From assembly GCA_027923505.1 (NCBI GenBank), contig BROI01000008.1, positions 1,054,001 to 1,118,000 of the forward strand: a stretch of DNA of 64,000 nucleotides, in the 5' to 3' direction. This DNA is from Mayamaea pseudoterrestris. Taxonomy: Eukaryota > Bacillariophyta > Bacillariophyceae > Sellaphorales > Sellaphoraceae. This document shows, piece by piece, positions 22,504 through 61,345 of this stretch. Both the position numbers and the translations under genes were made by a program. The notes beneath the pieces were generated by a model. The model worked only from the letters and a program-made list of their open reading frames with translations, had not been told where the DNA came from and did not search any database. Numbering within the stretch: position 1 is the first letter of the stretch; every line of letters begins with the position of its first letter.

Positions 22504-22652
22504 TCTGGACAATTAACCTACGGTAGTCGCGTTATGCAACATAAGATACATGGTGAGTGCCTCGTGTGGACGACGGAGCCGAGGATCAATTCATGTCGCA
22601 TTCACTACCGTTACGACGAGCGGTCGCTAACGCAAAAACCAAGTTAGGGACT

Positions 22653-22970
22653 CATACCACTAGGATGCCCCATGCCCTGGCCATTCAACGACCCAATCAG
22701 TCAGGCAAAACATGTCCAGGGTGTGCCATTGACATGAGCATGGTCTTAAATGGTGAGAAAAAGACTGCCTGGAAGCCTACACCATGGAATGGTCCGCAGG
22801 ATGGGTGTGGCTGACACCCCAACTTATGGTATCATACCACTAGGATGCCCTATGCCCTAACCACCCAACAACCCAATGAGTCAGGCAAAACCTGTCCAGG
22901 GTGAGCCATTGACATGAGCATGGCCTCAAATGGTGCGAAATGGACTGCCTGGAGGCTGACCATGGTACTG
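22653..22970 (+). repeat. Two-copy direct repeat, 180-bp period
   Basis: The segment starting CATACCACTAGGATGCCC occurs at 22653 and again at 22833. Both copies continue with CAGTCAGGCAAAAC- and CCATTGACATGAGCATGG-like blocks, diverging by scattered substitutions. The second copy ends near 22970. No relation to the neighbouring repeat families is obvious by eye. Confidence 0.75.
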
Positions 22971-23036
22971 TCGCTTGAGGCAGCTGCATAACTCCAGTCC
23001 GCAACTGGTAGCGTCTTTGCATTGTGTAAGTGAATG

Positions 23037-23372
23037 TCAATGTTCTTGCTCTTGTAGCGGCTTGTCCAACAATAATGTACTGGATGATAAACTGGAACTA
23101 GTTGTTGCGCTGCTGCTGCTGCTGCCATAATTCAACGTGGTACTCGTCGATTTGCTTGAAACGTGCCTGCGCATCTGCCAACAAAGCTCGCGCGCCTCGG
23201 TGCGAAAGACTTGCAAATCCTCCGCTTGGTACCATCTGGTAATTGGATTGTCGTTGTGGTCATCATGGAAGCTGCGGCAGGTATAATGTGCACCAGCTCG
23301 GAAACGTGGACCGATCGAATTTGACGATTTGAGAGAGCATCCAAAATAATGCCTGCTGAGGAAGTCATGCTG
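23037..23372 (-). pseudogene. Possible truncated diatom-type gene fragment
   Basis: An open frame of 111 codons without an ATG, ending at TGA 23037-23039. It contains ITRWYQAEDLQVFRTEARE, which recalls (from memory, not by search) the WYSKEDL-like motif of several diatom-restricted paralogous protein families, and a Ser/Thr-rich C-terminus. An acceptor-like CAG stands just before its first codons, but any upstream exon would lie in the adjacent tandem repeats and is not seen. It may be a 3' exon of a gene cut off by the repeat domain. A second frame overlapping it (23132-23464) lacks an ATG at its start and looks less protein-like. Confidence 0.35.
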
Positions 23373-23459
23373 CTACGGCTCCTCTCACTTTTGGATATTA
23401 CTAATGATAATGAGCAGGAAAGCTTTTGATCAGTCACGTCTATGTAGCACATTGTGGGT

Positions 23460-24032
23460 TTCAATATTGTTGCAGATGGAGTTGCCTATAACAAGCCCTA
23501 TATACACCAAAACCACATCAGAATGGTGCCAACATCATTATTCAGTCTGCGCTACAAGATGGCATGCCTGGCTGGTGACTCAGTAGACTGCAATGTGATT
23601 GGTGACAAGATGTCACCAGTCTCAGCCCACAGATGCCTTGACATTCAATTGCCCCTATAACATGCCCTGTGCATGCCCAAATCACACCAGAATGGTGCCG
23701 ACATCATTTTTTAGTCTGCGCTACAAGATGGCATGCCTGACTGGTGTCTCGGTAGACTGCAATGTGACTGGTGATAACTTCTCACCAGTCTCAGCCCTAT
23801 GCTGCCGTTGTGACATCCAATTGCCCATATAACAAGCCATGTCTCATCTGGTATGCATCCAAATTACACCAGAATATTGTCAACATCATTTTATAGGTTG
23901 CGGTACAAGATGTCATGACTGGCTGGTGTTTCATTTGACTGTTATGTGATTGTGACAAGCTGTCACCAGTCTCAGCCTGCAGATGCCGTGACATTCAATT
24001 GCCCATATAACATGCCACATATACACCCAATG
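23460..24032 (+). repeat. 169-181-bp tandem repeat, left copy, plus orientation
   Basis: About 3.4 units. The landmark CACCAGAATGGTGCC-like block recurs at 23516, 23685 and 23866, and the CCCATATAACATGCC-like block also recurs. The same family is present in reverse complement at 59220-60088, on the other side of the satellite. The last unit breaks off at about 24032, where 371-bp satellite sequence begins. Confidence 0.85.
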
Positions 24033-25290
24033 TTTTTGGACCTTATTATGCACCTATTGCGGATTGCAGTAGCAGGTTCAGATTCTTGCTGGCCAGGTTG
24101 CATCACTATACAAATCCCATCTGAAACTTTGATGTGGTGAAATCACTTGGAGGAACCTACTTGCTATATTCACGCATAATCACTGGCTGACTGGCTTCCA
24201 AATTGGAACATCTCAACCTTTGACTTTGTCAAACATCTTATCCCCATTGCCAAGGCATGCTCAGAATCATGCTAGCAAGGTTGGATCATCACATAAATCC
24301 CAACTGAAACTTTGCTGTGTTTGGCACACGGAACACCCTACTTGTTTCACTCTCAGTCACACCACAGCCGCTGCCAGAACTGCTGCTGTTTTCAAAGTTC
24401 CAAGCCTTGGACCTTGTCAAGCACCTTCTGTGGATTACAGTAGCAGGTTCAGATTCTCGCTGGCCAGGTTGCATCACTATTCAAATCCCATCTGAAACTT
24501 TGTTGTGGTGGAATCACTTGGAGGAACCTACTTGCTATATTCATGCATAACCACTGCCTGACTGGCTTCCAAATTGGAACATCTCAACCTTTGACTTTGT
24601 CAAACATCTTATTCTGATTGCCATGGCATGCTCAGAAACATGCTTGCAAGGTTGGATGATCACATAAATCCCAACTGAAACTTAGCTGTGTTTGGCACAC
24701 TCACACCACAGCCACTGCCAGAATTGTTGCTGGTTTCAAAGTTCCAAGCCTTGGACCTTGTCAAGCACCTTCTGCGGATTGCAGTAGCAGGTTCAGTTTC
24801 TTGGTGGCCAGGTTGCATCACTATACAAATCCCATCTGAAACTTTGATGTGGTGGAACCACTTGGAGGAACCTACTTGCTATATTCACGCACAACCACTG
24901 GCTGACTGGCTTCCAAATTGGAACATCTCAACCTTTGACTTTGTCAAACAACCTAACCTGATTGCTATGGCATGCTCAGAATCATGCTTACTAGGTTGGA
25001 TCATCACATAAATCCCAACTGAAACTTTGCTGTGTTTGGCCCATGGAACACCCTACTTGTTTCAGTCTCAGTCACACCACAGCCGCTGCCAGAACTGCTG
25101 CTGTTTTCAAAGTTCCAAGCCTTGGACCTTGTCAAGCACCTTCTGCGGATTGCAGTAGCAGGTTCAGATTCTTGGTGGCCAGGTTGCATCACTTTACAAA
25201 TCCCATCTGAAACTTTGATGTGGTGGAACCACTTGGAGAAATCTACTTGCTGTAATCACGCAAAACCACTGGCTGACTGGCTTCCAAATT

Positions 25291-25343
25291 GACCTAGTAA
25301 GCATGATTTTGAGCATGCTTGGCAATCAGGATAGGATGTTTGA
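25291..25343 (-). repeat. Inverted segment inside one satellite unit
   Basis: These 53 bp are the reverse complement of the normal satellite segment that runs from GTCAAACATCCTATCCTG to the CATGCTTACTAGG block. The flanks on both sides are in normal orientation. Confidence 0.85.
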
Positions 25344-28300
25344 CAAATCCCAACTGGAACTTTGCTGTGTTTGGCACACGGAACACCCTACTTGTTTCAG
25401 TCTCAGTCACACCACAGCCGCTGCCAGAACTGCAGCTGTTTTCAAAGTTCCAAGCCTTGGACCTTGTCAAGCACCTTCTGCGGATTGCAGTAGCAGGTTC
25501 AGATTCTTGTTGGCCAGGTTGCATCACTTTACAAATCCCATCTGAAACTTTGATGTGGTGGAACCACTTGGAGAAACCTACTTGCTATATTCACGCATAA
25601 TCACTGGCTGACTGGCTTCCAAATTGGAACATCTCAACCTTTGACTTTGTCAAACAACCTAACCTGATTGCCATGGCATGCTAAGAATCATGCTTGCAAG
25701 GTTGGATCATCACATAAATCCCAACTGAAACTTTGCTGTGTTTGGCACACAGAACACCCTACTTGTTTCAGTCTCAGTCACACCACAGCCGCTGCCAGAA
25801 CTGCTGCTGTTTTCAAAGTTTCAAGCCTTGGACCTTGTCAAGCACCTTCTGCGGATTGCAGTAGCAGGTTCAGTATCTTGGTGGCCAGGTTGCATCACTA
25901 CTTTACAAATCCCATCTGAAACTTTGATGTGGTGGAATCACTTGGAGGAACCTACTTGCTATATTCACGCATAATCACTGGCTGACTGGCTTCCAAATTG
26001 GAACATCTCAACCTTTGACTTTGTCAAACAACCTAACTTGATTGCCATGGCATGCTCAGAATCATGCTTGCAAGGTTGGATCATCACATAAATCCCAACT
26101 GAAACTTTGCTGTGTTTGGCACACGGAACACCCTACTTGTTTCAGTCTCAGTCACACCACAGTCGCTGCCAGAACTGCTGCTGTTTTCAAAGTTCCAAGC
26201 CTTGGACCTTGTCAAGCACCTTCTGCGGATTGCAGTAGCAGGTTCAGATTCTGGGTGGCCAGGTTGCATCACTTTACAAATCCCATCTGAAACTTCGATG
26301 TGGTGGAACCATTTGGAGGAACCTACTTGCTATATTCACACATAAGCACTGCCTGACTGGCTTCCAAATTGGAACATCTCAACCTTTGACTTTGTCAAAC
26401 AACCTATCCTGATTGCCATGGCATGCTTAGAATCATGCTTGCAAGGTTGGATCATCACATAAATCCCAACTGAAACTTTGCTGTGTTTGGCCCATGGAGC
26501 ACCCTACTTGTTTCAGTCTCAGTCACACCACAGCTGCTGCCAGAACTGCTGCTTGTTTTCAAAGTTCCAAGCCTTGGACCTTGTCAAGCACCTTCTGCGG
26601 ATTGCAGTAGCAGGTTCAGATTCTTGGTGGCCAGGTTGCATCACTTTACAACTCCAATCTGAAACTTTGATGTGGTGGAACCACTTGGAGAAACCTACTT
26701 GCTATATTCACGCATAACCACTGGCTGACTGGCTTCCAAATTGGAACATCTCAACCTTTGACTCTGTCAAACATCTTATCCCCATTGCCAAGGCATGCTC
26801 AGAATCATGCTTGCTAGGTTGGATCATCACATAAATCCCAACTGAAACTTTGCTGTGTTTGGCACATGGAACACCCAACTAGTTTCAGTCTCAGTCACAC
26901 CACAGCCACTGCCAGAATTGCTGGCGTATTCAAAGTTCCAAGCTTTGGACTTTGTCAAACACCTTCTGTGGATTGCAGTAGCAGGTTCAGATTCTTGGTG
27001 GCCAGGTTGCATCACTATACAAATCCCATCTGAAACTTTGATGTGGTGGAATCACTTAGAGGAACCTACTTGCTATATTCACGCATAATCACTGGCTGAC
27101 TGGCTTCCAAATTGGAACATCTCAACCTTTGACTTTGTCAAACAACCTAACCTGATTGCCATGGCATGCTCAGAATCATGCTTGCAAGGTTGGATCATCA
27201 CATAAATCCCAACTGAAACTTTGCTGTGTTTGGCACACGGAACACCCTACTTGTTTCAGTCTCAGTCACACCACAGCCGCTGCCAGAACTGCTGCTGTTT
27301 TCAAAGTTCCAAGCCTTGGACCTTGTCAAGCACCTTCTGCGGATTGCAGTAGCAGGTTCAGATTCTTGGTGGCCAGGTTGCATCACTTTACAAATCCCAT
27401 CTGAAACTTTGATGTGGTGGAACCACTTGGAGGAACCTACTTGCTATATTCACACATAAGCACTGCCTGACTGGCTTCCAAATTGGAACATCTCAACCTT
27501 TGGCTTTGTCAAACAACCTATCCTGATTGCCATGGCATGCTTAGAATCATGCTTGCAAGGTTCGATCATCACATAAATCCCAACTGAAATTTTGCTGTGT
27601 TTGGCCCATGGAGCACCCTACTTGTTTCAGTCTCAGTCACACCACAGCTGCTGCCAGAACTGCTGCTTGTTTTCAAAGTTCCAAGCCTTGGACCTTGTCA
27701 AGCACCTTCTGCGGATTGCAGTAGCAGGTTCAGATTCTTGGTGGCCAGGTTGCATCACTTTATAAATCCCATCTGAAACTTTGATGTGGTGGAACCACTT
27801 GGAGGAACCTACTTGCTATATTCACGCATAACCACTGGCTGACTGGCTTTCAAATTGGAACATCTCAACCTTTGACTCTGTCAAACATCTTATCCGCATT
27901 GCCAAGGCATGCTCAGAATCATGCTTGCTAGGTTGGATCATCACATAAATCCCAACTGAAACTTTGCTGTGTTTGGCACATGGAACACCCAACTAGTTTC
28001 AGTCTCAGTCACACCACAGCCACTGCCAGAATTGCTGGCGTATTCAAAGTTCCAAGCTTTGGACCTTGTCAAGCACCTTCTGTGGATTGCAGTAGCAGGT
28101 TCAGATTCTTGGTGGCCAGGTTGCATCACTATACAAATCCCATCTGAAACTTTGATGTGGTGGAACCACTTGGAGGAACCTACTTGCTATATTCATGCAT
28201 ATCCACTGGCTGACTGGCTTCCAAATTGGTACATCTCAACCTTTGACTTTGTCAAACAACCTATCCTGATTGCCATGGCATGCTCAGAATCATGCTTGCA

Positions 28301-29430
28301 AGGTTGGATCATCACATAAATCCCAACTGAAACTTTGCTGTGTTTGGCCCATGGAACACCCTACTTGTTTCAGTCTCAGTCACACCACAGCCACTGCCAG
28401 AATTGCTGCTGTATTTAAAATTCCAAGCCTTGGACCTTGTCAAGCACCTTCTGCGGATTACAGTAGCAGGCTCAGATTCTTGGTGGCTAGGTTGCATCAC
28501 TATTCAAATCCCATCTGAAACTTTGATGTGGTGGAACCAATTGGAGGAACCTACTTGCTATGTTCACGCATAACCACTACCTGACTGGCTTCCAAATTGG
28601 AACATCTCAGCCTTTGACTTTGTCAAACAACTTATTCTGATTGCCGTGGCATGCTCAGAAGCATGCTAGCAAGGTTGGATCATCACATAAATCCCAACTG
28701 AAATTTTGCTGTGTTTGGGACATGGAACACCCTACTTGTTTCAGTCTCAGTCACACCACAGCCCCTGCTAGAACTGATGCTGTTTTCAAAGTTCCAAGCT
28801 TTGGACCTCGTCAAGCACCTTCTGCGGATTGCAGTAGCAGGTTCAGATTCTTGGTGGCCAGGTTGCATCACTTTATAAATCCCATCTGAAAATGTGATAT
28901 GGTGGAACCACTTGGAGGAATCTACTTGCTATATTCACACATAAGCACTGCCTGACTGGCTTCCAAATTGGAACATTTCAACCTTTGGCTTTGTCAAACA
29001 ACCTATCCTGATTGCCATGGCATGCTTAGAATCATGCTTGCAAGGTTGGATCATCACATAAATCCCAACTGAAACTTTGCTGTGTTTGGCCCATGGAGCA
29101 CCCTACTTGTTTCAGTCTCAGTCACACCACAGCCACTGCCAGAATTGCTGCTGTATTCACAATTCCAAGCCTTGGACCTTGTCAAGCACCTTCTGCGGAT
29201 TGCAGTAGCAGGTTCAGATTCTTGGTGGCCAGGTTGCATCACTTTATAAATCCCATCTGAAACTTTGATGTGGTGGAACCACTTGGAGGAACCTACTTGC
29301 TATATTCACGCATAACCACTGGCTGACTGGCTTCCAAATTGGAACATCTCAACCTTTGACTTTGTCAAACATCTTATCCTGATTGCCAAGGCATGCTCAG
29401 AATCATGCTTGCAAGGTTGGATCATCACAT

Positions 29431-32106
29431 AAATCCCAACTGAAACTTTGCTGTGTTTGGCACATGGAACACCCAACTAGTTTCAGTCTCAGTCACACCA
29501 CAGCCGCTGCCTGAACTGCTGCTGTTTTCAAAGTTTCAAGCCTTGGACCTTGTCAAGCACCTTCTGCGGATTGCAGTAGCAGGTTCAGATTCTTGGTGGC
29601 CAGGTTGCATCACTATACAAATCCCATCTGAAACTTTGATGTGGTGGAACCACTTGGAGGAACCTACTTGCTATATTCACGCATAACCACTGGCTGACTG
29701 GCTTCCAAATTGGAACATCTCAACCTTTGACTTTGTCAAACAACCTATCCTGATTGCCATAGCATGCCCAGAATCATGCTTGCTAGGTTGGATCATCACA
29801 TAAATCCCAACTGAAACTTTGCTGTGTTTGGCCCATGGAACACCCTACTTGTTTCAGTCTCAGTCACACCACAGCCACTGCCAGAATTGCTGCTGTATTC
29901 AAAGTTCCAAGCCTTGGACCTTGTCAAGCACCTTCTGCGGATTGCAGTAGCAGGTTCAGATTCTTGGTGGCCAGGTTGCATCACTATACAAATCCCATCT
30001 GAAACTTTGATGTGGTGGAACCACTTGGAGGAACCTACTTGCTATATTCACGCATAACCACTGGCTGACTGGCTTCCAAATTGGAACATCTCAACCTTTG
30101 ACTTTGTCAAACAACCTATCCTGATTGCCATGGCATGCTCAGAATCATGCTTGCAAGGTTGGATCATCACATAAATCCCAACTGAAACTTTGCTGTGTTT
30201 GGCCCATGGAACACCCTACTTGTTTCAGTCTCAGTCACACCACAGCCACTGCCAGAACTGCTGCTGTATTCAAAGTTCCAAGCCTTGGACCTTGTCAAGC
30301 ACCTTCTGCGGATTGCAGTAGCAGGTTCAGATTCTTGGTGGCCAGGTTGCATCACTTTACAAATCCCATCTGAAACTTTGATGTGGTGGAACCACTTGGA
30401 GGAACCTACTTGCTATATTCACGCATAACCACTGGCTGACTGGCTTCCAAATTGGAACATCTCAACCTTTGACTTTGTCCACCAACCTATCCTGATTGCC
30501 ATGGCATGCTCAGAATCATGCTTGCAAGGTTGGATCATCACATAAATCCCAACTGAAACTTTGCTGTGTTTGGCACACGGAACACCCTACTTGTTTCAGT
30601 CTCAGTCACACCACAGCCGCTGCCAGAACTGCTGCTGTTTTCAAAGTTCCAAGCCTTGGACCTTGTCAAGCACCTTCTGCGGATTGCAGTAGCAGGTTCA
30701 GAATCTTGGTGGCCTGGTTGCATCACTATACAAATCCCATCTGAAACTTGGTTGTGGTGGAACCACTTAAATCCCAACTGAAACTTTGCTGTGTTTGGCA
30801 CATGGAACACCCAACTAGTTTCAGTCTCAGTCACACCACAGCCGCTGCCTGAACTGCTGCTGTTTTCAAAGTTTCAAGCCTTGGACCTTGTCAAGCACCT
30901 TCTGCGGATTGCAGTAGCAGGTTCAGATTCTTGGTGGCCAGGTTGCATCACTATACAAATCCCATCTGAAACTTTGATGTGGTGGAACCACTTGGAGGAA
31001 CCTACTTGCTATATTCACGCATAACCACTGGCTGACTGGCTTCCAAATTGGAACATCTCAACCTTTGACTTTGTCAAACAACCTATCCTGATTGCCATAG
31101 CATGCCCAGAATCATGCTTGCTAGGTTGGATCATCACATAAATCCCAACTGAAACTTTGCTGTGTTTGGCCCATGGAACACCCTACTTGTTTCAGTCTCA
31201 GTCACACCACAGCCACTGCCAGAATTGCTGCTGTATTCAAAGTTCCAAGCCTTGGACCTTGTCAAGCACCTTCTGCGGATTGCAGTAGCAGGTTCAGATT
31301 CTTGGTGGCCAGGTTGCATCACTATACAAATCCCATCTGAAACTTTGATGTGGTGGAACCACTTGGAGGAACCTACTTGCTATATTCACGCATAACCACT
31401 GGCTGACTGGCTTCCAAATTGGAACATCTCAACCTTTGACTTTGTCAAACAACCTATCCTGATTGCCATGGCATGCTCAGAATCATGCTTGCAAGGTTGG
31501 ATCATCACATAAATCCCAACTGAAACTTTGCTGTGTTTGGCCCATGGAACACCCTACTTGTTTCAGTCTCAGTCACACCACAGCCACTGCCAGAACTGCT
31601 GCTGTATTCAAAGTTCCAAGCCTTGGACCTTGTCAAGCACCTTCTGCGGATTGCAGTAGCAGGTTCAGATTCTTGGTGGCCAGGTTGCATCACTTTACAA
31701 ATCCCATCTGAAACTTTGATGTGGTGGAACCACTTGGAGGAACCTACTTGCTATATTCACGCATAACCACTGGCTGACTGGCTTCCAAATTGGAACATCT
31801 CAACCTTTGACTTTGTCCACCAACCTATCCTGATTGCCATGGCATGCTCAGAATCATGCTTGCAAGGTTGGATCATCACATAAATCCCAACTGAAACTTT
31901 GCTGTGTTTGGCACACGGAACACCCTACTTGTTTCAGTCTCAGTCACACCACAGCCGCTGCCAGAACTGCTGCTGTTTTCAAAGTTCCAAGCCTTGGACC
32001 TTGTCAAGCACCTTCTGCGGATTGCAGTAGCAGGTTCAGAATCTTGGTGGCCTGGTTGCATCACTATACAAATCCCATCTGAAACTTGGTTGTGGTGGAA
32101 CCACTT
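29431..32106 (+). repeat. Higher-order duplication of 1338 bp in the satellite
   Basis: 29431-30768 and 30769-32106 are two successive, apparently near-identical copies. Variant landmarks recur at exactly 1338 bp (29453/30791, 29796/31134, 30125/31463, 30496/31834). The junction joins a monomer B piece ending GGAACCACTT directly to a monomer A piece starting AAATCCCAAC. The unit is about 3.6 dimers, so the crossover was between non-equivalent monomer positions. Confidence 0.9.
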
Positions 32107-38798: not shown

Positions 38799-39174
38799 TG
38801 GCATGCTCAGAATCATGCTAGCAAGGTTGGATCATCACATAAAACCCAACTGAAATTTCTGTGTTTTGGCCCATAGAACACCCTACTTGTTTCAGTCTCA
38901 GTCACACCACAGCCACTGCCAGAATTGCTGCTGTATTCAAAGTTCCAAGCCTTGGATCTTGTCAAGCACCCTCTGCAGATTGCAGTAGCAGGTTTAGATT
39001 CTTGGTGGCTAGGTTGCATCACTATTCAAATCCCATCTGAAACTTTGATGTGGTGGAACCAATTGGAGGAACCTTTGCTATTTGCCAGACCAAAGCCGCG
39101 GGACTCGGATGCAAACCTTTAGCTACAGTCTCGTAACCTAGTAATCTCAAAGTTGCAGAAGATTGTAACGTCTG

Positions 39175-45100: not shown

Positions 45101-46439
45101 GACTTTTCTTTCCAGGCCTCCCAAGTGGCTGTCACCTGCGACATGATCCATGTTTCAGTTTTCATGTCGTCGGCACTCTCTCTGCATCCCTTGAGCCAAA
45201 TAGTGAGAAGGCGATTGTCGTCCATCCAGTCGTATACTTCATTTGGCAGCCCCGTAAAGGCGATGCAGTGCGCTTTCAACTGCTCGGCTGTAGTGCAGAC
45301 GGCCGGATCCAATGGTAAACCGATCGGCATGCCGTGGTTTGGAGGGAGAAAGAAGCACCCCAAATCTTTGTTGTCGAATGCTGTAACTCTCTATCGGTGG
45401 CGTACGCTAAAACTGGCTTTTCTCCATATTGATATAAAGGCGGGCCCTCCCAGTGGCCAGTGCCTCCAATAAGCTCGTGCTCGAACGAGCCTGCGTCTGG
45501 CAGTTCTTCCTCGTGAATGCAGAGCATCACAGGTTGTAGCATCTTGTCACCGCGCGGAAATACAGCCATGTCCATCTTGATTTCCTCGAACCATTCTTCA
45601 CGTGTAGACTGCAATGGGGCTCGTGTTTGCCTTGATAGACTCGCGAGGATTGGAACCATTGCTTGAGGCGCGTCAAACCCGCTGGGTGATAGCAAGAGTG
45701 TCGGCTCGACCGGGTCGTCAGTATCCGACAGACCTTCATTATCCATCTCTGGTCCATTGGTAACTGAATGGCCGAGCTTTGTGTCATGGAGAGAATACTT
45801 TTCGCCAAGCGCCGTTCCTGACGGCATGGCTGAGCAAATGATAACCAGCTGCTCTTTTCCTGGGTGCGTTTCATCAGCGCCCGGGGCTCCTGCGCCCGAG
45901 TACTGCTTGCGTAAGGATGAGAGTGTCAAGATGCCTCCAATATTTTCCGTCGTTAAGAGCTTGAGGCGAGTAGGCGTTCCATGCCACATGTGTTTTCCAT
46001 CACCGTCGAGGCCTTCCTGCTTGGTCATCTCCTTGTTCAAAGCGTAAACTTCCTCCTTCGTCAGGACCACCTGCCCTTCAGTCCAACCATCAATCTGCAA
46101 CTCCATAGCTGCGGCTCTCTCCTCTCTCTTGGGCGTCTCCTCCCCCAGCCACGTAGTCGAGGCCTTGGTTTGGATCGGCAAACGGAAAGCAGGCGAAGCG
46201 CCCCCAAACTCTTTGAGAGCTCCAGGGAAACGGACGAGCGTCATGATCAAGAAAACGAGAGAATAGGGAGCAAAGAAAACGCGGTTCGAGCAACAAAGGC
46301 AAGAACAAACAACAGAGAGCTTGCTAGACAACAACAAGGTCGGCAAGCTAACCAAAGGAATGGGAGGCAACCCGATCAACATCGGCATGTGGTCTGCCCG
46401 TTGTCGGTAGCTGTTCCCATTCTTCTCTCCCCGCACCAC
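42151..46439 (-). mobile_element. Gag-like and leader part of the fossil element
   Basis: A long stretch, open over much of its length, upstream of the RT region. It holds a helical, Trp-rich segment of capsid-like character (about 44.2-45.3 kb) and a Gln/Pro-rich segment followed by a short Cys cluster of knuckle-like spacing (about 43.0-43.4 kb). No significant family is recognised by eye; the assignment rests on position and composition. Treated as a fossil. Confidence 0.5.
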
Positions 46440-46466
46440 TGATGATGTGACTATCGATCACAGTGT

Positions 46467-46489
46467 ACTCATAAGGGTATCTTATGAGT
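46467..46489. repeat. Perfect short palindrome at the edge of the fossil element
   Basis: ACTCATAAG at 46467-46475 and CTTATGAGT at 46481-46489 form a 9-bp stem with a 5-nt loop, about 40 bp from the satellite junction. It could be a terminal feature of the element or chance. Confidence 0.5.
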
Positions 46490-46530
46490 GTCCCCAAGGC
46501 AGTCTCCTCAAAGCATCCGCCCTGAGCCGG

Positions 46531-49500: not shown

Positions 49501-52500
49501 CATCACATAAATCCCAACTGAAACTTTGCTGTGTTTGGCACATGGAGCACCCTCCTTGTTTCAGTCTCAGTCACACCACAGCCACTGCCAGAATAGCTGC
49601 TGTTTTCAAAGTTCCGAGCCTTGGACCTTGTCAAGCACCTTCAGTGGATTGCAGTAACAGGTTCAGATTATTGCTGGCCAGGTTGCATCACTATACAAAT
49701 CCCATCTGAAACTTTGATGTGGTGGAACCACTTGGAGGAACCTACTAGCTATATTCACGCTTGACCACTGGCTGACTGGCCTCCAAATTGGAACATCTCA
49801 ACCTTTGACTTTGTCAAACATCTTATCCTGATTGCCATGGCATGCTCAGAATCATGCTAGCAAGGTTGGATCATCACATAAACCCCATCTGAAACTTTGC
49901 TGAGTTTGGCACATGGAGCACCCTCCTTGTTTCAGTCTCAGTCACACCACAGCCACTGCCAGAATAGCTGCTGTTTTCAAAGTTCCAAGCCTTGGACCTT
50001 GTCAAGCACCTTCTGCGGATTGCAGTAGCAGGTTCAGATTCTTGCTGGCCAGGTTGCATCACTATACAAATCCCATCTGAAACTTTAAATGTGGTGGAAC
50101 TACTTGTCGGAACCTACCTGCTATATTCATGCTTGACCACTGGCTGACTGGCTTCCAAATTGGAACATCTCAACCTTTGACTTTGTCAAACATCTTATCC
50201 TGATTGCCATGGCATGCTCAGAATCATGCTAGCAAAGTTGGATCATCACATAAATCCCAACTGAAACTTTGCTGTGTTTGGCACATGGAGCACCCTACTT
50301 GTTTCAGTCTCAGTCACACCACAGCCACTGCCAGAATAGCTGCTGTTTTCAAAGTTCCAAGCCTTGGACCTTGTCAAGCACCTTCTGCGGATTGCAGTAG
50401 CAGGTTCAGATTCTTGCTGGCCAGGTTGCATCACTATACAAAGTCCATCTGAAACTTTGATGTGGTGGAACCACTTGGAGGAACCTACTAGCTATATTCA
50501 CGCTTGACCACTGGCTGACTGGCTTCCAAATTGGAACATCTCAACCTTTGACTTTGTCAAACATCTTATCCTGATTGCCATGGCATGCTCGGAATCATGC
50601 TAGCAAGGTTGGATCATCACATAAATCCCAACTGAAACTTTGCTGTGTTTGGCACATGGAGCACCCTACTTGTTTCAGTCTCAGTCACACCACAGCCAAT
50701 GCCAGAATAGCTGCTGTTTTCAAAGTTCCAAGCCTTGGACCTTGTGAAGCACCTTCTGTGGATTGCAGTAGCAGGTTCAGGTTCTTGCTGGCTAGGTTGC
50801 ATCACTATACAAATCCCATCTGAAACTATGATGTGGTGGAACCACTTGTAGGAACCACTTGTAGGAACCTACTTGCTATATTCACGCATAACTACCGACT
50901 GACTGGCTTCAAAATTGGAACATCTCAACCTTTGACTTTGTCAAACATCTTATCCTGATTGCCATGGCATGCACAGAATCATGCTAGCAAGATTGGATCA
51001 TCACATAAATCCCAACTGAAACTTTGCTGTGTTTGGCACATGGAACACCCTACTTGTTTTAGTCTCAGTCACACCACAGCCACTGCCAGAATGGCTGCTG
51101 TTTTTAAAGTTCCAAGCCTTGGACCTTGTCAAGCACCCTCTGCAGATTGCAGTAGCAGGTTCAGAATCTTGCTGGCCAGGTTGCATCACTATACAAATCC
51201 CATCTGAAACTTTGATGTGGTGGAACCACTTGTAGGAACCTACTTGCTTTATTCACGCTTAACCACTGGCTGACTGGCTTCCAAACTGAAACATCTCAAC
51301 CTTTGACTTTGTCAAACATCTTATCCTGATTGCCATGGCATGCACAGAATCATGCTAGCAAGGTTGGATCATCACATAAATCCCAACTGAAACTTTGCTG
51401 AGTTTGGCACATGGAGCACCCTCCTTGTTTCAGTCTCAGTCACACCACAGCCACTGCCAGAATAGCTGCTGTTTTCAAAGTTCCAAGCCTTGGACCTTGT
51501 CAAGCACCTTCTGCGGATTGCAGTAGCAGGTTCAGAATCTTGCTGGCCAGGTTGCATCACTATACAAACCCCATCTGAAACTTTGATGTGGTGGAACCAC
51601 TTGTAGGAACCTACTTGCTATATTCACGCATAACCACCGACTGACTGGCTTAAAAATTGGAACATCTCAACCTTTGACTTTGTCAAACATCTTATCCTGA
51701 TTGCCATGCCATGCTCAGAATCATGCTAGCAAGGTTGGATCATCACATAAATCCCAACTGAAACTTTGCTGTGTTTGGCACATGGAGCACCCTACTTGTT
51801 TCAGTCTCAGTCACACCACAGCCACTGCCAGAATAGCTGCTGTTTTCAAAGTTCCAAGCCTTGGACCTTGTCAAGCACCTTCTGCGGATTGCAGTAGCAG
51901 GTTCAGAATCTTGCTGGCCAGGTTGCATCACTATACAAATTCCATCTGAAACTTTGATGTGGTGGAACCACTTGTAGGAACCTACTTGCTATATTCACGC
52001 ATAACCACCGACTGACTGGCTTCCAAATTGGAACATCTCAACCTTGGACTTTGTCAAACATCTTATCCTGATTGCCATGGCATGCTCAGAATCATGCTAG
52101 CAAGGTTGGATCATCACATAAATCCCAACTGAAACTTTGCTGTGTTTGGCACATGGAGCACCCTACTTGTTTCAGTCTCAGTCACATCACAGCCACTGCC
52201 AGAATAGCTGCTGTTTTCAAAGTTCCAAGCCTTGGACCTTGTCAAGCACCATCTGCGGACTGCAGTAGCAGGTTCAGATTCTTGCTGGCCAGGTTGCATC
52301 ACTATACAAATCCCATCTGAAACTTTGATGTGGTGGAACCACTTGTAGGAACCTACTTGCTTTATTCACGCATAACCACTGGCTGACTGGCTTCCAAATT
52401 GGAACATCTCAACGTTTGACTTTGTCAAACATCTTATCCTGATTGCCATGGCATGCTCAGAATCATCATGCTAGCAAGGTTGGATCATCACATAAATCCC

Positions 52501-55500
52501 AACTGAAACTTTGCTGTGTTTGGCACATGGAGCACCCTCCTTGTTTCAGTCTCAGTCACACCACAGCCACTGCCAGAATAGCTGCTGTTTTCAAAGTTCC
52601 AAGCCTTGGACCTTGTCAAGCACCTTCAGTGGATTGCAGTAGCAGGTTCAGATTCTTGCTGGCCAGGTTGCATCACTATACAAATCCCATCTGAAACTTT
52701 GATGTGGTGGAACCACTTGTAGGAACCTACTAGCTATATTAACGCTTGACCACCGACTGACTGGCTTCCAAATTGGAACATCTCACCCTTTGACTTTGTC
52801 AAACATCTTATGCTGATTGCCATGGCATGCTCAGAATCATCATGCTAGCAAGGTTGGATCATCACATAAATCCCAACTGAAACTTTGCTGTGTTTGGCAC
52901 ATGGAACACCCTACTTGTTTCAGTCTCAGTCACACCACAGCCACTGCCAGAATAGCTGCTGTTTTCAAAGTTCCAAGCCTTGGACCTTGTCAAGCACCTT
53001 CTGTGGACTGCAGTAGCAGGTTCAGAATCTTGCTGGCCAGGTTGCATCACTATACAAATCCCATCTGAAACTTTGATGTGGTGGAACCACTTGTAGGAAC
53101 CTACTTGCTATATTCACGCTTGACCACTGGCTGACTGGCTTCCAAATTGAAACATCTCAACATTTGACTTTGTCAAACATCTTATCCTAATTGCCATGGC
53201 ATGCTCAGAATCATGCTAGCAAGGTTGGATCATCAAATAAATCCCAACTGAAACTTTGCTGTGTTTGGCACATGGAGCACCCTACTTGTTTCAGTCTCAG
53301 TCACACCACAGCCACTGCCAGAATAGCTGCTGTTTTCAAAGTTCCAAGCCTTCAACCTTGTTAAGCACCTTCTGGGGAATGCAGTAGCAGGTTCAGAATC
53401 TTGCTGGCCAGGTTGCATCACTATACAAAGTCCATCTGAAACTTTGATGTGGTGGAACCACTTGTAGGAACCTACTTGCTATATTCACGCTTGACCACTG
53501 GCTGACTGGCTTCCAAATTGGAACATCTCAACATTTGACTTTGTCAAACATCTTATCCTGATTGCCATGGCATGCTCAGAATCATGCTAGCAAGGTTGGA
53601 TCATCACATAAATCCCAACTGAAACTTTGCTGTGTTTGGCACATGGAGCACCCTCCTAGTTTCAGTCTCAGTCACACCACAGCCACTGCCAGAATAGCTG
53701 CTGTTTTCAAAGTTCCAAGCCTTGGACCTTGTCAAGCACCATCTGTGGACTGCAGTAGCAGGTTCAGATTCCTGCTGGCCAGGTTGCATCACTATACAAA
53801 TCCCATCTGAAACTTTGATGTGGTGGAACCACTTGTAGGAACCTACTTGCTATATTCACGCTTAACCACTGGCTGACTGGCTTCCAAATTGGAACATCTC
53901 AACATTTGACTATGTCAAACATCTTATCCTGATTGCCATGGCATGCTCAGAATCATGCTAGCAAGGTTGGATCATCACATAAATCCCAACTGAAACTTTG
54001 CTGTGTTTGGCACATGGAACACCCTACTTGATTCAGTCGCATTCACACCACAGCCACTGCCAGAATAGCTGCTGTTTTCAAAGTTCCAAGCCTTCAACCT
54101 TGTCAAGCACCCTCTGCGGATTCCAGTAGCAGGTTCAGATTATTGCTGGCCAGGTTGCATCACTATACAAATCCAATCTGAATTTTTTATGTGGTGGAAC
54201 CACTTGTAGGAACCTACTAGCTATATTCACGCTTGACCACTGGCTGACTGGCTTCAAAATTGGAACATCTCAACCTTTGACTTTGTCAAACATCTTATCC
54301 TGATTGCCATGGCATGCTCAGAATCATGCTAGCAAGGTTGGATCATCACATAAACCCCATCTGAAACTTTGCTGTGTTTGGCACATGCAACACCCTACTT
54401 GATTCAGTCGCATTCACACCACAGCCACTGCCAGAATAGCTGCTGTTTTCAAAGTTCCAAGCCTTCAACCTTGTGAAACACCTTCTGTGGATTGCAGTAG
54501 CAGGTTCAGAATCTTGCTGGCCAGGTTGCATCACTATACAAATTCCATCTGAAACTTTGATGTGGTGGAACCACTTGGAGGAACCTACTTGCTATATTCA
54601 CACTTGACCACTGGCTGACTGGCTTCCAAATTGGAACATCTCAACCTTTGACTTTGTCAAACATCTTATCCTGATTGCCATGGCATGCTCAGAATCATGC
54701 TAGCAAGGTTGGATCATCACATAAATCCCAACTGAAACTTTGCTGTGTTTGGCACATGGAGCACCCTACTTGTTTCAGTCTCAGTCACACCACAGCCACT
54801 GCCAGAATAGCTGCTGTTTTCAAAGTTCCAAGCCTTGGACCTTGTCAAGCACCTTCTGCGAATTGCAGTAGCAGGTTCAGATTCTTGCTGGCCAGGTTGC
54901 ATCACTATACAAATTCCATCTGAAACATTGATGTGGTGGAACCACTTGGAGGAACCTACTTGCTATATTCACGCTTGACCACTGGCTGACTGGCTTCCAA
55001 ATTGGAACATCTCAACCTTTGACTTTGTCAAACATCTTATCCTAATTGCCATGGCATGCTCAGAATCATGCTAGCAAGGTTGGATCATCACATAAACCCC
55101 ATCTGAAACTTTGCTGTGTTTGGCACATGCAACACCCTACTTGATTCAGTCGCATTCACACCACAGCCACTGCCAGAATAGCTGCTGTTTTCAAAGTTCC
55201 AAGCCTTCAACCTTGTGAAACACCTTCTGTGGATTGCAGTAGCAGGTTCAGAATCTTGCTGGCCAGGTTGCATCACTATACAAATTCCATCTGAAACTTT
55301 GATGTGGTGGAACCACTTGGAGGAACCTACTTGCTATATTCACACTTGACCACTGGCTGACTGGCTTCCAAATTGGAACATCTCAACCTTGGACTTTGTC
55401 AAACATCTTATCCTGATTGCCATGGCATGCTCAGAATCATGCTAGCAAGGTTGGATCATCACATAAATCCCAACTGAAACTTTGCTGTGTTTGGCACATG

Positions 55501-58500
55501 GAGCACCCTACTTGTTTCAGTCTCAGTCACACCACAGCCACTGCCAGAATAGCTGCTGTTTTCAAAGTTCCTAGCCTTGGACCTTGTCAAGCACCTTCTG
55601 CGAATTGCAGTAGCAGGTTCAGAGTCTTGCTGGCCAGGTTGCATCACTATACAAAGTCCATCTGAAACATTGATGTGGTGGAACCACTTGGAGGAACCTA
55701 CATGCTATATTAACGCTTGACCACTGGCTGACTGGCTTCCAAATTGGAACATCTCAACCTTTGACTTTGTCAAACATCTTATCCTGATTGCCATGGCATG
55801 CTCGGAATCATGCTAGCAAGGTTGGATCATCACATAAATCCCAACTGAAACTTTGCTGTGTTTGGCACATGGAGCACCCTACTTGTTTCAGTCTCAGTCA
55901 CACCACAGCCACTGCCAGAATAGCTGCTGTTTTCAAAGTTCCAAGCCTTGGACCTTGTCAAGCACCTTCTGTGGACTTGCAGTAGCAGGTTCAGAATCTT
56001 GCTGGCCAGGTTGCATCACTATACAAATCCCATCTGAAACTTTGATGTGGTGGAACCACTTGTCGGAACCTACTTGCTATATTCACAAATAACCACCAAC
56101 TGACTGGCTTCAAAATTGGAACATCTCAACCTTGGACTTTGACAAACATCTTATCCTGATTGTCATGGCATGCTCAGAATCATGCTAGCAAGGTTGGATC
56201 ATCACATAAATCCCAACTGAAACTTTGCTGTGTTTGGCACATGGAACACCCTACTTGTTTCAGTCTCAGTCACACCACAGCCACTGCCAGAATAGCTGCT
56301 GTTTTCAAAGTTCCTAGCCTTGGACCTTGTGAAGCACCTTCTGTGGATTGCAGTAGCAGGTTCAGAGTCTTGCTGGCCAGGTCGCATCACTATACAAATC
56401 CCATCTGAAACTTTGATGTGGTGGAACCACTTGGAGAAACCTACTTGCTATATTCACGCATGACCACTGGCTGACTGGCTTCCAAATTGGAACATCTCAA
56501 CATTTGACTTTGTCAAACATCTTATCCTGATTGCCATGGCATGCACAGAATCATGCTAGCAAGGTTGGATCATCACATAAATCCCAACTGAAACTTTGCT
56601 GAGTTTGGCACATGGAACACCCTACTTGTTTCAGTCTCAGTCACACCACAGCCACTGCCAGAATAGCTGCTGTTTTCAAAGTTCCAAGCCTTGGACCTTG
56701 TCAAGCACCTTCTGCGGATTGCAGTAGCAGGTTCAGATTATTGCTGGCCAGGTTGCATCACTATACAAATCCCATCTGAAACACTTTGATGTGGTGGAAC
56801 CACTTGGAGAAACCTACTTGCTATATTCACGCATAACCACCGACTGACTGGCTTCAAAATTGGAACATCTCAACCTTTGACTTTGTCAAACATCTTATCC
56901 TGATTGCCATGGCATGCACAGAATCATCATGCTAGCAAGATTGGATCATCACATAAATCCCAACTGAAACTTTGCTGAGTTTGGCACATGGAGCACCCTC
57001 CTTGTTTCAGTCTCAGTCACACCACAGCCACTGCCAGAATAGCTGCTGTTTTCAAAGTTCCAAGCCTTGGACCTTGTCAAGCACCTTCTGCGGATTGCAG
57101 TAGCAGGTTCAGATTCTTGCTGGCCAGGTTGCATCACTATACAAATCCCATCTGAAACTTTGATGTGGTGGAACCACTTGGAGAAACCTACTTGCTATAT
57201 TCACGCTTGACCACCGACTGACTGGTTTCCAAATTGGAACATCTCAACCTTGGGCTTTGACAAACATCTTATCCTGATTGCCATGGCATGCTCAGAATCA
57301 TGCTAGCAAGGTTGGATCATCACATAAATCCCAACTGAAACTTTGCTGTGTTTGGCACATGGAGCACCCTACTTGATTCAGTCTCAGTCACACCACAGCC
57401 ACTGCCAGAATAGCTGCTGTTTTCAAAGTTCCTAGCCTTGGACCTTGTGAAGCACCTTCTGTGGATTGCAGTAGCAGGTTCAGAGTCTTGCTGGCCAGGT
57501 CGCATCACTATACAAATCCCATCTGAAACTTTGATGTGGTGGAACCACTTGGAGAAACCTACTTGCTATATTCACGCATGACCACTGGCTGACTGGCTTC
57601 CAAATTGGAACATCTCAACATTTGACTTTGTCAAACATCTTATCCTGATTGCCATGGCATGCTCAGAATCATCATGCTAGCAAGGTTGGATCATCACATA
57701 AATCCCAACTGAAACTTTGCTGAGTTTGGCACATGGAGCACCCTCCTTGTTTCAGTCTCAGTCACACCACAGCCACTGCCAGAATAGCTGCTGTTTTCAA
57801 AGTTCCAAGCCTTGGACCTTGTCAAGCACCTTCTGCGGATTGCAGTAGCAGGTTCAGATTCTTGCTGGCCAGGTTGCATCACTATACAAATCCCATCTGA
57901 AACTTTGATGTGGTGGAACCACTTGGAGGAACCTACATGCTATATTCACGCTTGACCACTGGCTGACTGGCTTCCAAATTGGAACATCTCAACCTTGGAC
58001 TTTGTCAAACATCTTATCCTGATTGCCATGGCATGCTCAGAATCATGCTAGCAAGGTTGGATCATCACATAAATCCCAACTGAAACTTTGCTGTGTTTGG
58101 CACATGGAGCACCTTCCTTGTTTCAGTCTCAGTCACACCACAGCCACTGCCAGAATAGCTGCTGTTTTCAAAGTTCCAAGCCTTGGACCTTGTCAAGCAC
58201 CTTCTGCAGATTGCAGTAGCAGGTTCAGAATCTTGCTGGCCAGGTTGCATCACTATACAAATCCCATCTGAAACTTTGATGTGGTGGAACCACTTGTCGG
58301 AACCTACTTGCTATATTCACGAATAACCACCAACTGACTGGCTTCAAAATTGGAACATCTCAACCTTGGACTTTGACAAACATCTTATCCTGATTGCCAT
58401 GGCATGCTCAGAATCATCATGCTAGCAAGGTTGGATCATCACATAAATCCCAACTGAAACTTTGCTGTGTTTGGCACATGCAACACCCTACTTGTTTCAG

Positions 58501-58826
58501 TCTCAGTCACACCACAGCCACTGCCAGAATAGCTGCTGTTTTCAAAGTTCCAAGCCTTGGACCTTGTCAAGCACCTTCTGTGGACTTGCAGTAACAGGTT
58601 CAGATTATTGCTGGCCAGGTTGCATCACTATACAAATCCCATCTGAAACTTTGATGTGGTGGAACCACTTGGAGGAACCTACTTGCTATATTCACAAATA
58701 ACCACCAACTGACTGGCTTCCAAATTGGAACATCTCAACCTTTGACTTTGTCAAACATCTTATCCTGATTGCCATGGCATGCTCAGAATCATGCTAGCAA
58801 GGTTGGATCATCACATAAATCCCATT
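46531..58826 (+). repeat. 371-bp satellite array, right block (about 33 units)
   Basis: Same unit and orientation as the left block. Two monomer A variants alternate: one with GTTTCAGTCTCAGTCACACC and one with GATTCAGTCGCATTCACACC. The second recurs at 46942, 48055 and 49169, a three-dimer (1113-1114 bp) higher-order period, and at 54346 and 55088, a two-dimer (742 bp) period. Several units carry a 3-bp ATC insertion in AGAATCATCATGC (near 52463, 52837, 56925, 57670 and 58414), marking related units. The array stops at about 58826 within monomer A. Confidence 0.97.
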
Positions 58827-59219
58827 CCTCTTATGTTTGTTGATATTTTGAGCCAATGCTGTGGTGACTATCACCCCGATATCCACCAGCCTGTCTGCCA
58901 TGGTGGGACTGGGCAGATCCAATAACTCGTTGGATCTGCCAGCGGTGCACCTCAAGTGGCACTTCAGACTGCCAGAATGGCCTGCCAACTCTGGAATACT
59001 AAAGACATTATGTTTTATAATGGATAAGGATGATGCAAAGGCTTGTCACTAGGGGTGTGTAACCCATTCCTTTGCCATGAGACTCTGCACATTCCACAAA
59101 TGATTGAATGTGCCAGCGGTGCACCCTTTTTGGCTCAGGAATCATCTGTGTTGCCCGCGGAGCCCACCAATCCATTTCATTTCATGTTTGATGTCATGAT
59201 GGGCAAATGCGTTGGTCAG
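58827..59219. other. Low-copy spacer between satellite and inverted flanking repeat
   Basis: About 390 bp with no recognised gene. The 14-mer GCCAGCGGTGCACC appears near 58938 and 59112 (174 bp apart), with weak similarity around it. Short frames here look non-coding. Confidence 0.4.
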
Positions 59220-60088
59220 TTGCACCCAGAATGTCACGGCATCTGTGGGCTAAGACTGGTAAGAAGTTCTAACCAGTCACATCACAGTCTACTGGTTCAC
59301 CAGCCAGGCACACCATCTTGTAGCGCAACCTAAATAAAGATGTTGGCACCATTCTGGTGTGATTCGGGTGTATACATGGCATGTTGTATGGGCAAGTAAA
59401 TGTCACATCAGCAGCATGCTGAGACTGGTGACAACTTGTCACCAATCACATTGCAGTCTACTGAGACACCAGCCAGTCATACCATCTTGTAGCGCAGCCT
59501 GAAAAATGATGCTGTCATCATTCTGGTGTGATTTGGGTGTATGCATGGCATGTTATATGGGCAGTTGAATGTCACGGCATCTTTGGTTTGAGACTGGTAA
59601 GAAGTTCTCACCAGTCACATTGACGTCTACTGAGACACCAGCCAGGCATACCATCTTGTAGTGATCACTGAATAATGATGTTGGCACCATTCTGGTCTGA
59701 TTTGGGTGTATACATGGCACGTTATATGGGCAATTGAATGCCACGGCATCTATGAGCTGAGACTGGTGAGAGGTTCTCACCAGTCACATTGCAGCCTACT
59801 GAGACACCAGCCAGTCATACCATTTTGTAGCGCACACTGAATTAATGATGTTGGCACCATTATGGTGTGGTGGGGGTGTATACATGGCATGGTATATGAG
59901 CATTTGAATGTCCAGGCATCTGTGGGCTGAGACTGGTGACAAGTTGTCACCAATCACATTGCAGTCTGCTGAGACACCAGCCAGGCATACCAACTTATAG
60001 TGCAGCCTAAATGATGATGTTGGCACCATTCATGTGTAATTTGGGTGTATACATGGCATGTTATAGGGGCAATTGAATGTGCTGGCTG
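59220..60088 (-). repeat. 169-bp tandem repeat, right copy, inverted orientation
   Basis: Five units. The landmark GGCACCATTCTGGTGTGATT recurs, with variation, near 59343, 59512, 59682, 59851 and 60020 (169-170 bp steps). It is the reverse complement of the family at 23460-24032; for example, the CATCTTGTAGCGCA block matches the TGCGCTACAAGATG block there. Confidence 0.88.
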
Positions 60089-61345
60089 GAGTGTCTGCCT
60101 ACCCATCCAACTGATGCTACAAGTCTGCAGGAAATGAGATGTATGCACCAATTGCACCACATTCTAGTCAGAAGGCATATCCATTTATGAATTGATGGAT
60201 AAGGACTATGAGGGGAAGTGCCTGGAGGTTGCACTTTAGCACCATGGAGCTTATTACTCTTTGAATGTCTGCCCTCCCAAACAACTGATGCTACATGTGA
60301 GCATTGAATGATTGTTATGCACCAATCTCACCGAATATGTGTCCCCAAGCATAGCAAGAACAGAATTCATGGAACAAGACTATTGGGGGTAGTCGTTGAA
60401 GGCCACACACTGTAGCACCATGGAGCTGGTTACTGTGCGGATATTTGCCCTCCCAAACAACTAATGCTACATGTGAGCTGGGAATGATTGTTATACACCA
60501 ATTCCACCGCATACAAGTCCCAAAGGATAGCCTAAACAGAATTCATGGAACAAGACTATTGGGGGCAGTCTTTATAGGCTACACACTGTAGCACCGTGGA
60601 GCTGGTCACTGTGTGGAGGTTTGCCCTCCCAAACAACTGATGCTATATGTGATCTGGGAATGCTTTTTCTGCACCAATCTCATTGCAAACCTGGTCCCAA
60701 AGCATAGCCAGAACAGAATTTATGGAACAAGACTATTGGTGGTAGTCTTTATAGGCCACACACTGTAGCACCATGGAGCTGGTCATTGTGTGGAGGTTTG
60801 CCCTCCCAAACAGCTAATGCTACATGTGAGCTGGGAATGATTGTTATGCACCAATCTCACCAAATACGTGTCACCAAGCATAGCCAGAACAGAATTCATG
60901 GAACAAGACTATTGGGGGTAGTATTTATAGGTCACACTGTAGCACCATGGAGCTGGTTACTGTGTGGAGGTTTGCCCTCCCAAACAGCTGATGCTACACG
61001 TGAGCTGGGAATGATTGATATGCAACAATCTCACCGCATATGTGTCCTTGAGCATAGCCAGAACAGAATTCATGGAACAAGACTATCGGGGGTAGTCTTT
61101 ATAGGCCACACACTGTAGCACCGTGGAGCTGGTTACTGTGTGGAGGTTCGCCCTCCCATACAACAATTGCTGCAAGTGAGCTTGAAATGGTTTTTATGCA
61201 CCAATCTCACCGCATATTAGTCTTAAAGAATAGCCAGACAGAATTGATGGGAAAACGCTAACAATGGCAAGATTTGAAGGCCACACACTTAGCACAATGA
61301 TGCTACCGATAGTCACTGCTTGGGCATCTGCCCTACCATTCATGC
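60089..61345 (+). repeat. Eight-copy tandem repeat, about 176-bp period
   Basis: The landmark GCCCTCCCAAAC (or a variant) occurs at 60097, 60271, 60447, 60623, 60800, 60974, 61150 and 61330 (steps 174-180). Each unit also carries AATTCATGGAACAAGACTAT and GTAGCACCATGGAGCTGG. The first and last units are clearly more diverged than the central ones. Not evidently related to the other repeat families. Confidence 0.9.

What the first reader, a model, noticed from the sequence alone, without database searches (positions are those of the whole stretch)
22653..61345. Four separate tandem-repeat families with near-nucleosomal periods form one 39-kb domain with inverted flanks
Seen directly: periods of 180 bp (22.65-22.97 kb), 169-181 bp (23.46-24.03 kb and, inverted, 59.22-60.09 kb), about 185 bp per monomer (371-bp dimer, 24.03-58.83 kb) and 174-180 bp (60.09-61.35 kb). 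By eye the families are not related in sequence, yet all repeat close to one nucleosome length, and one family brackets the satellite as an inverted pair. Known: centromeric and pericentromeric satellites often have nucleosome-scale monomers, higher-order repeats and embedded retroelements. Inference: this may be a (peri)centromeric or other phased heterochromatic domain. Diatom centromeres studied so far were described as short, AT-rich and not satellite-based, so a satellite domain like this would be of interest.
Basis: partly seen in the sequence, partly recalled or inferred. Interest (0 to 1): 0.78.

Follow-up and report, generated by a model that had tools for sequence, protein, structure and literature searches.

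The report
Five-family satellite island losing its CpGs
A 39-kb stretch of a eukaryotic chromosome is built mostly of unrelated repeats that all recur at about the length of DNA held by one nucleosome and have nearly all lost their CpG sites, which points to a long-silenced block of chromosome; whether it is a centromere could not be tested.

Summary
The repeats are real. A 371-bp unit (two diverged halves of about 183 and 188 bp) fills 24,037-39,081 and 46,532-58,824. A 169-bp family lies on both sides in opposite orientations, a 174-177-bp family to the right and a 180-bp pair (about 1.8 copies) to the left. I add a possible fifth, decayed pair 174 bp apart at 58.83-59.23 kb. The families are unrelated by alignment. 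The gap at 39.08-46.53 kb is a broken, probably tyrosine-recombinase, retroelement with a scrambled satellite patch inside.

New here: 8 of 8 repeat stretches are CpG-depleted (observed/expected 0.10-0.30). Flanking DNA is 1.03-1.27; non-repeat DNA inside the domain 0.71-0.90. Differences among copies fit CpG decay to TpG/CpA. Best reading: a long-methylated, silenced satellite island, grown partly by out-of-register tandem duplication.

Not supported: the inverted flanks as a structural pair; a 10-bp nucleosome signal in the main satellite; copies older towards both edges. The repeats start 136 bp from a TauE/SafE ORF's first Met. Centromere identity and genome-wide copy number are untestable here (no genome held); the diatom assignment is unproven.

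The parts
22639..22976 (+). 180-bp repeat, about 1.8 copies, CpG o/e 0.17
22977..23480 (.). unique spacer, CpG o/e 0.86
23481..24036 (+). 169-bp family, 3 full copies, CpG o/e 0.25
24037..39081 (+). 371-bp dimeric satellite, left part, 42 segments, CpG o/e 0.12
25292..25347 (-). micro-inversion of satellite
29430..32106 (+). exact tandem duplication, 1,339 bp at offset 1,338, out of register
35083..38796 (+). exact tandem duplication, 1,857 bp at offset 1,857, joint with 6 bp repeated
39082..39708 (-). retroelement fragment with weak tyrosine-recombinase match, CpG o/e 0.71
39709..40430 (+). scrambled satellite patch inside the retroelement, CpG o/e 0.14
40431..46531 (-). body of the broken retroelement (reverse transcriptase and RNase H motifs recalled by eye), CpG o/e 0.90
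46532..58824 (+). 371-bp dimeric satellite, right part, 34 segments, CpG o/e 0.10
58825..59225 (.). possible fifth family: 56-bp match 174 bp apart, CpG o/e 0.30
59226..60086 (-). 169-bp family in the opposite orientation, 5 full copies, CpG o/e 0.20
60087..61300 (+). 174-177-bp family, 6 full copies and partial ones, CpG o/e 0.21

Best explanation
This is an island of satellite heterochromatin set between non-repetitive DNA. Shown: five tandem sequence families (one of them weak), unrelated to one another, with monomers of 166-188 bp, all strongly depleted in CpG while the non-repeat DNA around and between them is not or only mildly so. Inferred: the repeats have long been CpG-methylated, and deamination turned most CpGs into TpG or CpA. 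Shown: the main array carries two exact tandem duplications with out-of-register joints, a micro-inversion, truncated units and a satellite patch inside a broken retroelement. Inferred: the array turns over partly by break repair with end joining or template switching, besides in-register exchange, and the retroelement arrived after most of the CpG loss. Its likely effect is a silenced, structural or selfish chromosome block. The shared spacing near one nucleosome fits repeats being kept or targeted as nucleosome-sized units; that step is not shown.
For: CpG o/e 0.10-0.30 in 8 of 8 repeat stretches against 1.03-1.27 in 4 of 4 flanking stretches. TpG and CpA o/e are 1.34-2.11 in the 8 repeat stretches, 1.09-1.33 in the 4 flanks. 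Fisher tests of CpG against TpG+CpA give p of 7.1e-8 or less for each of the 8 (copies are not independent, so the long arrays' values are overstated). The lowest of 490 overlapping 338-bp flank windows is 0.48. At the two consensus CpG sites of the 371-bp unit, C to T is 31 of 148 and G to A 15 of 145, against 84 of 6,980 and 97 of 5,150 at other C and G (left and right parts, patch left out). Exact duplications and joints. Precedent: passages of PMC5124317 report highly methylated repeat regions up to 30 kb and gene-rich hypomethylated regions in the diatom Cyclotella cryptica.
Against: Methylation was not measured, and the CpG loss may predate arrival here. In columns holding a CpG the two short families show TG/CA in 37 of 64 (169-bp) and 28 of 52 listed (176-bp) cells; control columns holding a GC show the matching changes in 63 of 178 and 29 of 101, so the excess there is modest. 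The 371-bp rate rests on two sites. The spacer (0.86) and retroelement (0.71, 0.90) are only mildly depleted. The perfect duplications may be assembly errors. The repeats start 136 bp from a TauE/SafE ORF's first Met, close for a silenced block.
Confidence: 0.66

Rival explanations
1. It is a centromere or pericentromere: the 371-bp array carries the centromeric histone, or borders the array that does, and the other families are older satellites beside it.
For: Long homogeneous array of a two-nucleosome-length unit, other diverged tandem families on both sides, nested retroelement. A review passage says centromeric satellites are most often 100-400 bp (PMC12321929).
Against: No gradient of age towards both edges (rho 0.13, p 0.28, n 74), only a left-to-right trend (rho 0.38, p 0.0009). 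No 10-bp signal in the main unit. A gene ORF lies 136 bp away. Passages describe Phaeodactylum centromeres as short and AT-rich.
Confidence: 0.15
2. The CpG loss is inherited: each family decayed elsewhere, in mobile elements or larger arrays, and arrived here already CpG-poor; the block itself need not be methylated now.
For: The unique spacer between two repeat stretches is only mildly depleted (0.86), and even a pair of 1.8 copies is depleted (0.17); the patch within the retroelement keeps the deficit (0.14) while the element around it does not.
Against: Copies of the 371-bp unit still differ at CpG sites about ten times as often by C to T or G to A as elsewhere (46 of 293 against 181 of 12,130), so decay went on after amplification.
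Confidence: 0.2
3. The short arrays are tandem repeats carried inside mobile elements, as in some Helitrons or foldback elements (recalled), and the inverted pair is two insertions of one element.
For: Two separate arrays of one family in opposite orientation; palindromic stretch in the 169-bp unit.
Against: No sequence beyond the arrays is shared between the two sites in the self-search; no transposase found in the ORFs scanned.
Confidence: 0.12
4. The inverted flanks are a functional inverted repeat, as around fission-yeast centromere cores (recalled).
For: Opposite orientation on the two sides.
Against: Identity across sides is no higher than within sides, copy numbers are 3 and 5, and two arrays have an even chance of opposite orientation (the last is reasoning).
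Confidence: 0.03

Closest known systems
Heterochromatic satellite DNA with nucleosome-scale monomers (plants, animals; in oomycetes PpSat1 and PpSat2)
   Same: Head-to-tail noncoding array, unit of 100-400 bp, nested mobile element (passages of PMC7290008 and PMC12321929)
   Different: Several unrelated families of nearly equal period lie together within 39 kb; abundance elsewhere is unknown
Methylated repeat blocks of the diatom Cyclotella cryptica (PMC5124317, passages only)
   Same: Repeat block of tens of kb in a genome with gene-rich low-methylation regions; CpG context
   Different: Methylation was measured there and is inferred here; 'satellite' and 'tandem repeat' do not occur in that paper's main text
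Centromeres of the diatom Phaeodactylum tricornutum (second-hand, PMC7082073 passages)
   Same: No shared feature was tested
   Different: Described as short, simple and AT-rich, non-repetitive; this is 28 kb of satellite at about 45% G+C
DIRS-like tyrosine-recombinase retroelements (for the insert)
   Same: Weak Phage_integrase match; reverse transcriptase and RNase H motifs recalled by eye
   Different: No Pfam reverse-transcriptase hit; no repeat found joining the ends; broken and split by satellite

Membership tests
Satellite DNA | long head-to-tail array of a 100-400 bp unit | tested here: met
   79 segments of a 371-bp unit, 28,060 bp
Satellite DNA | noncoding | tested here: met
   no stop-to-stop ORF of 150 aa or more listed within 24,037-39,081 or 46,532-58,824
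Satellite DNA | abundant elsewhere in the genome | not testable with these tools
   no own genome held
Methylated heterochromatin | DNA methylation or repressive histone marks | tested here: inconclusive
   indirect only: CpG o/e 0.10-0.30 in 8 of 8 repeat stretches
Satellite-based centromere | centromeric histone enrichment | not testable with these tools
   needs ChIP
Satellite-based centromere | one main array per chromosome | not testable with these tools
   no genome held
Satellite-based centromere | copies older towards both edges (often seen, not required) | tested here: not met
   rho with distance to edge 0.13, p 0.28, n 74
Satellite-based centromere | 10-bp WW periodicity in the monomer (often seen, not required) | tested here: not met
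   371-bp unit p 0.93, 0.83 and 0.94 in 3 of 3 tests
Inverted-repeat centromere of fission-yeast type | near-identical inverted flanks | tested here: not met
   0.76-0.87 across sides, 0.77-0.86 within, 3 against 5 copies
DIRS-like retroelement (the insert) | tyrosine recombinase domain | tested here: inconclusive
   PF00589 E 0.0066, 16.7 bits against a cut-off of 27.1
DIRS-like retroelement (the insert) | reverse transcriptase | tested here: inconclusive
   no Pfam hit at E 10; motifs by eye only
DIRS-like retroelement (the insert) | inverted or split direct terminal repeats | tested here: inconclusive
   short-word self-search lists 10 matches, none joining the two ends; the true ends are not known

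The most novel reading that the evidence does not exclude
In this organism, probably a diatom, unrelated tandem repeats are all held near one nucleosome length because chromatin-bound CpG methylation recognises or maintains them as nucleosome-sized units, and such methylated islands serve as centromeres or pericentromeres, unlike the short AT-rich centromeres described for Phaeodactylum.
Probability: 0.12. Interest if true: 0.82.

Novelty: new member of a known kind. Interest (0 to 1): 0.5.

Why it matters
Five unrelated families sharing both a period near one nucleosome and the same CpG decay make a clean test of whether silencing machinery selects repeat length. If the organism is a diatom, satellite heterochromatin of this kind is something that the listings did not announce for diatoms. 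The repeat-specific CpG scar gives a sequence-only way to look for such blocks in unannotated protist genomes, and the exact out-of-register duplications, if real, record how arrays grow.

Tried and rejected
Own-genome search and files: not held. The satellite elsewhere: no match in phage records; a 30-base core, exact, 0 in viral contigs; a 20-base pattern in bacterial and archaeal genomes, 1 hit in a Yanofskybacteria MAG, taken as chance (about one expected, my own estimate). One retroelement ORF in viral contigs: 2 pattern matches, 0 confirmed. TauE ORF and two retroelement pieces against solved structures: no match at E 0.001, and only weak ones (E 0.24-2.4) at E 10. Two AlphaFold models: mean pLDDT 34 and 39, unusable, so no fold search was made. 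Rfam at gathering scores and tRNA scan: 0.

Common origin of the families: rejected. Single recent inverted duplication: rejected. Copies older at both edges: not supported; a left-to-right trend exists (rho 0.38, p 0.0009). Ten-bp periodicity: not supported for 3 of 4 units; 2 of 12 tests reach p 0.010-0.013, both in the 180-bp unit, uncorrected. Residual CpGs clustering in one part of the monomer: seen, but few sites and related halves, so not used.
Full report
WHAT WAS CHECKED. Tandem Repeats Finder, a self-BLAST, k-mer spacing and a wrap-around alignment agree on the repeats. From left to right: a 180-bp pair at 22,639-22,976; a unique spacer; a 169-bp family with three full copies on the plus strand at 23,481-24,036; a 371-bp satellite at 24,037-39,081; an insert; the satellite again at 46,532-58,824; a decayed stretch with a 56-bp match 174 bp apart at 58,825-59,225; the 169-bp family in the other orientation, five full copies, at 59,226-60,086; and a 174-177-bp family at 60,087-61,300. 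The 371-bp unit consists of two related halves: TRF also reports periods 183 and 188 at 66-67% match, and the consensus aligns to itself at a shift of 188. No two of the five families align better than shuffled sequence: 10 of 10 pairs, highest z 1.6.

THE INTERRUPTION. The satellite is broken at 39,082-46,531. The insert lies on the minus strand and has several overlapping ORFs in shifted frames. The piece at its left end has a weak Phage_integrase match, E 0.0066, below Pfam's cut-off. By eye, from recalled motifs, two middle ORFs look like a reverse transcriptase and the start of an RNase H, but Pfam gives no hit at E 10 and single-sequence AlphaFold models of one of them and of the recombinase piece are unusable. 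I call it a probable tyrosine-recombinase retroelement. Within it lies a 722-bp satellite patch (39,709-40,430), scrambled by small gaps (78 gap bases in three segments), in the same orientation as the array.

THE MAIN RESULT. CpG is nearly gone from the repeats, and strongly only from the repeats. Observed over expected: 180-bp family 0.17, 169 left 0.25, 371 left 0.12, patch 0.14, 371 right 0.10, fifth stretch 0.30, 169 right 0.20, 174-177-bp family 0.21. Flanks: 1.08, 1.03 and 1.12 on the left, 1.27 on the right. Non-repeat DNA inside the domain: spacer 0.86, recombinase fragment 0.71, retroelement body 0.90; these three are mildly lower than the flanks (p 0.018-0.022). TpG and CpA are raised in the repeats (1.34-2.11 against 1.09-1.33 in the flanks). 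The lowest of 490 overlapping 338-bp windows in the flanks is 0.48. Variation among copies agrees for the main satellite: at its two consensus CpG sites C to T occurs in 31 of 148 and G to A in 15 of 145, against 84 of 6,980 and 97 of 5,150 at other C and G positions (the patch was left out). For the short families the excess is modest: where any copy has a CpG, TG or CA stands in 37 of 64 cells of the 169-bp family and 28 of 52 listed cells of the 176-bp family, while control columns with a GC show the matching changes in 63 of 178 and 29 of 101 listed cells (8 and 6 copies, partial copies left out). Together this is the usual trace of CpG methylation followed by deamination; methylation itself was not measured. 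Fisher p-values for the long arrays are overstated because copies are related.

HOW THE ARRAY CHANGES. Mean pairwise identity without gaps is 0.939 within the left part, 0.954 within the right part and 0.938 between them. Two exact tandem duplications stand out: 1,857 bp at offset 1,857 and 1,339 bp at offset 1,338. Their joints are out of register with the 371-bp unit: the first repeats 6 bp at the joint, the second joins different parts of the unit with at most 1 bp in common. Exchange between aligned copies would be in register, so I infer end joining or template switching, or an assembly error. A micro-inversion of 56 bases sits at 25,292-25,347. A review's abstract argues for break-induced replication as the likely main mode of satellite growth at centromeres (PMC12321929, passages).

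The inverted 169-bp arrays are not a recent inverted duplication: identity is 0.76-0.87 across sides and 0.77-0.86 within sides, copy numbers are 3 and 5, and no flanking DNA is shared in the self-search. The 371-bp unit has no 10-bp signal (p 0.93, 0.83, 0.94), nor do the 169- and 176-bp units (lowest p 0.086); the 180-bp unit gives p 0.010 and 0.013 in 2 of 12 uncorrected tests. Copies are not older towards both edges (rho 0.13, p 0.28, n 74 of the 76 left and right segments), but identity rises from left to right (rho 0.38, p 0.0009), the leftmost third of the left part being most diverged (0.954 against 0.965-0.970 elsewhere). The first repeat lies 136 bp from the first Met of an ORF with a strong TauE/SafE match. 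The right flank is not shown to be a host gene: the ORF at 62,913 has no Pfam hit and, from recall only, resembles the gag of diatom copia-type retroelements.

ORGANISM. The Pfam matches on the left (kinase, NopRA1, RNA-recognition motif, TauE/SafE, a CCDC53-like stretch) fit a nuclear eukaryotic genome. I could not prove a diatom. Local G+C of 0.47-0.54 in the left and right flanks is compatible with the 46.9-48.8% quoted for three diatoms in PMC12803021 (passages), which is weak evidence.

LITERATURE. Only listings and passages were seen, no whole paper. No listed title or abstract start announced satellite-based diatom centromeres or diatom satellite DNA (25 of 33 listed; 20 of 26; 7 of 7; 9 of 10; 3 of 3; 5 of 5; 20 of 32). 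In six diatom genome papers searched by word, 'satellite' occurs 0 times in the main text of 6 of 6 (PMC8147415, PMC12803021, PMC8329260, PMC11032307, PMC11960938, PMC5124317); one reports tandem repeats as 7.72% of the Skeletonema tropicum genome. PMC7082073 passages describe Phaeodactylum centromeres as short and AT-rich. PMC5124317 passages report methylated repeat regions up to 30 kb in Cyclotella cryptica. PMC12344493 passages note DNMT5 with TE-limited methylation in Phaeodactylum, and mention an internucleosomal pattern in some other species with DNMT5. The original Phaeodactylum centromere paper was not held.

VERDICT. A real satellite island, best read as long-methylated heterochromatin. 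The new element is the shared CpG scar on five unrelated families of near-equal period. Centromere function stays open. On checking, confidence in the best reading was lowered from 0.68 to 0.66 because the short families' control columns make their copy-level signal modest.

Noticed in passing
23,481-24,036 and 59,226-60,086: Each 169-bp unit holds a near-palindrome of about 25 bp. One pair of it is G-C in 3 copies, C-G in 4 and unpaired in 1 of the 8 full copies (by eye), giving two unit types that partly alternate.
   Followed up: partly
58,912-58,940 and about 59,087-59,113: Both members of the possible fifth family can form a hairpin, and the stem differences between them look compensating (by eye).
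   Followed up: partly
41,898-42,055: A 79-bp tandem duplication (97.5%) inside the retroelement's coding region.
   Followed up: no
62,913-64,000: A frameshifted ORF that, from recall only, resembles the gag of diatom copia-type retroelements; no Pfam hit.
   Followed up: partly
2,926-3,916: Diverged direct repeats (67-75% identity, spacings such as 213 bp) inside the long ORF 311-6,445; perhaps protein repeats.
   Followed up: no
24,037-39,081 and 46,532-58,824: Steady negative GC skew (about -0.13 to -0.16 in windows wholly inside the satellite), absent in the retroelement.
   Followed up: no
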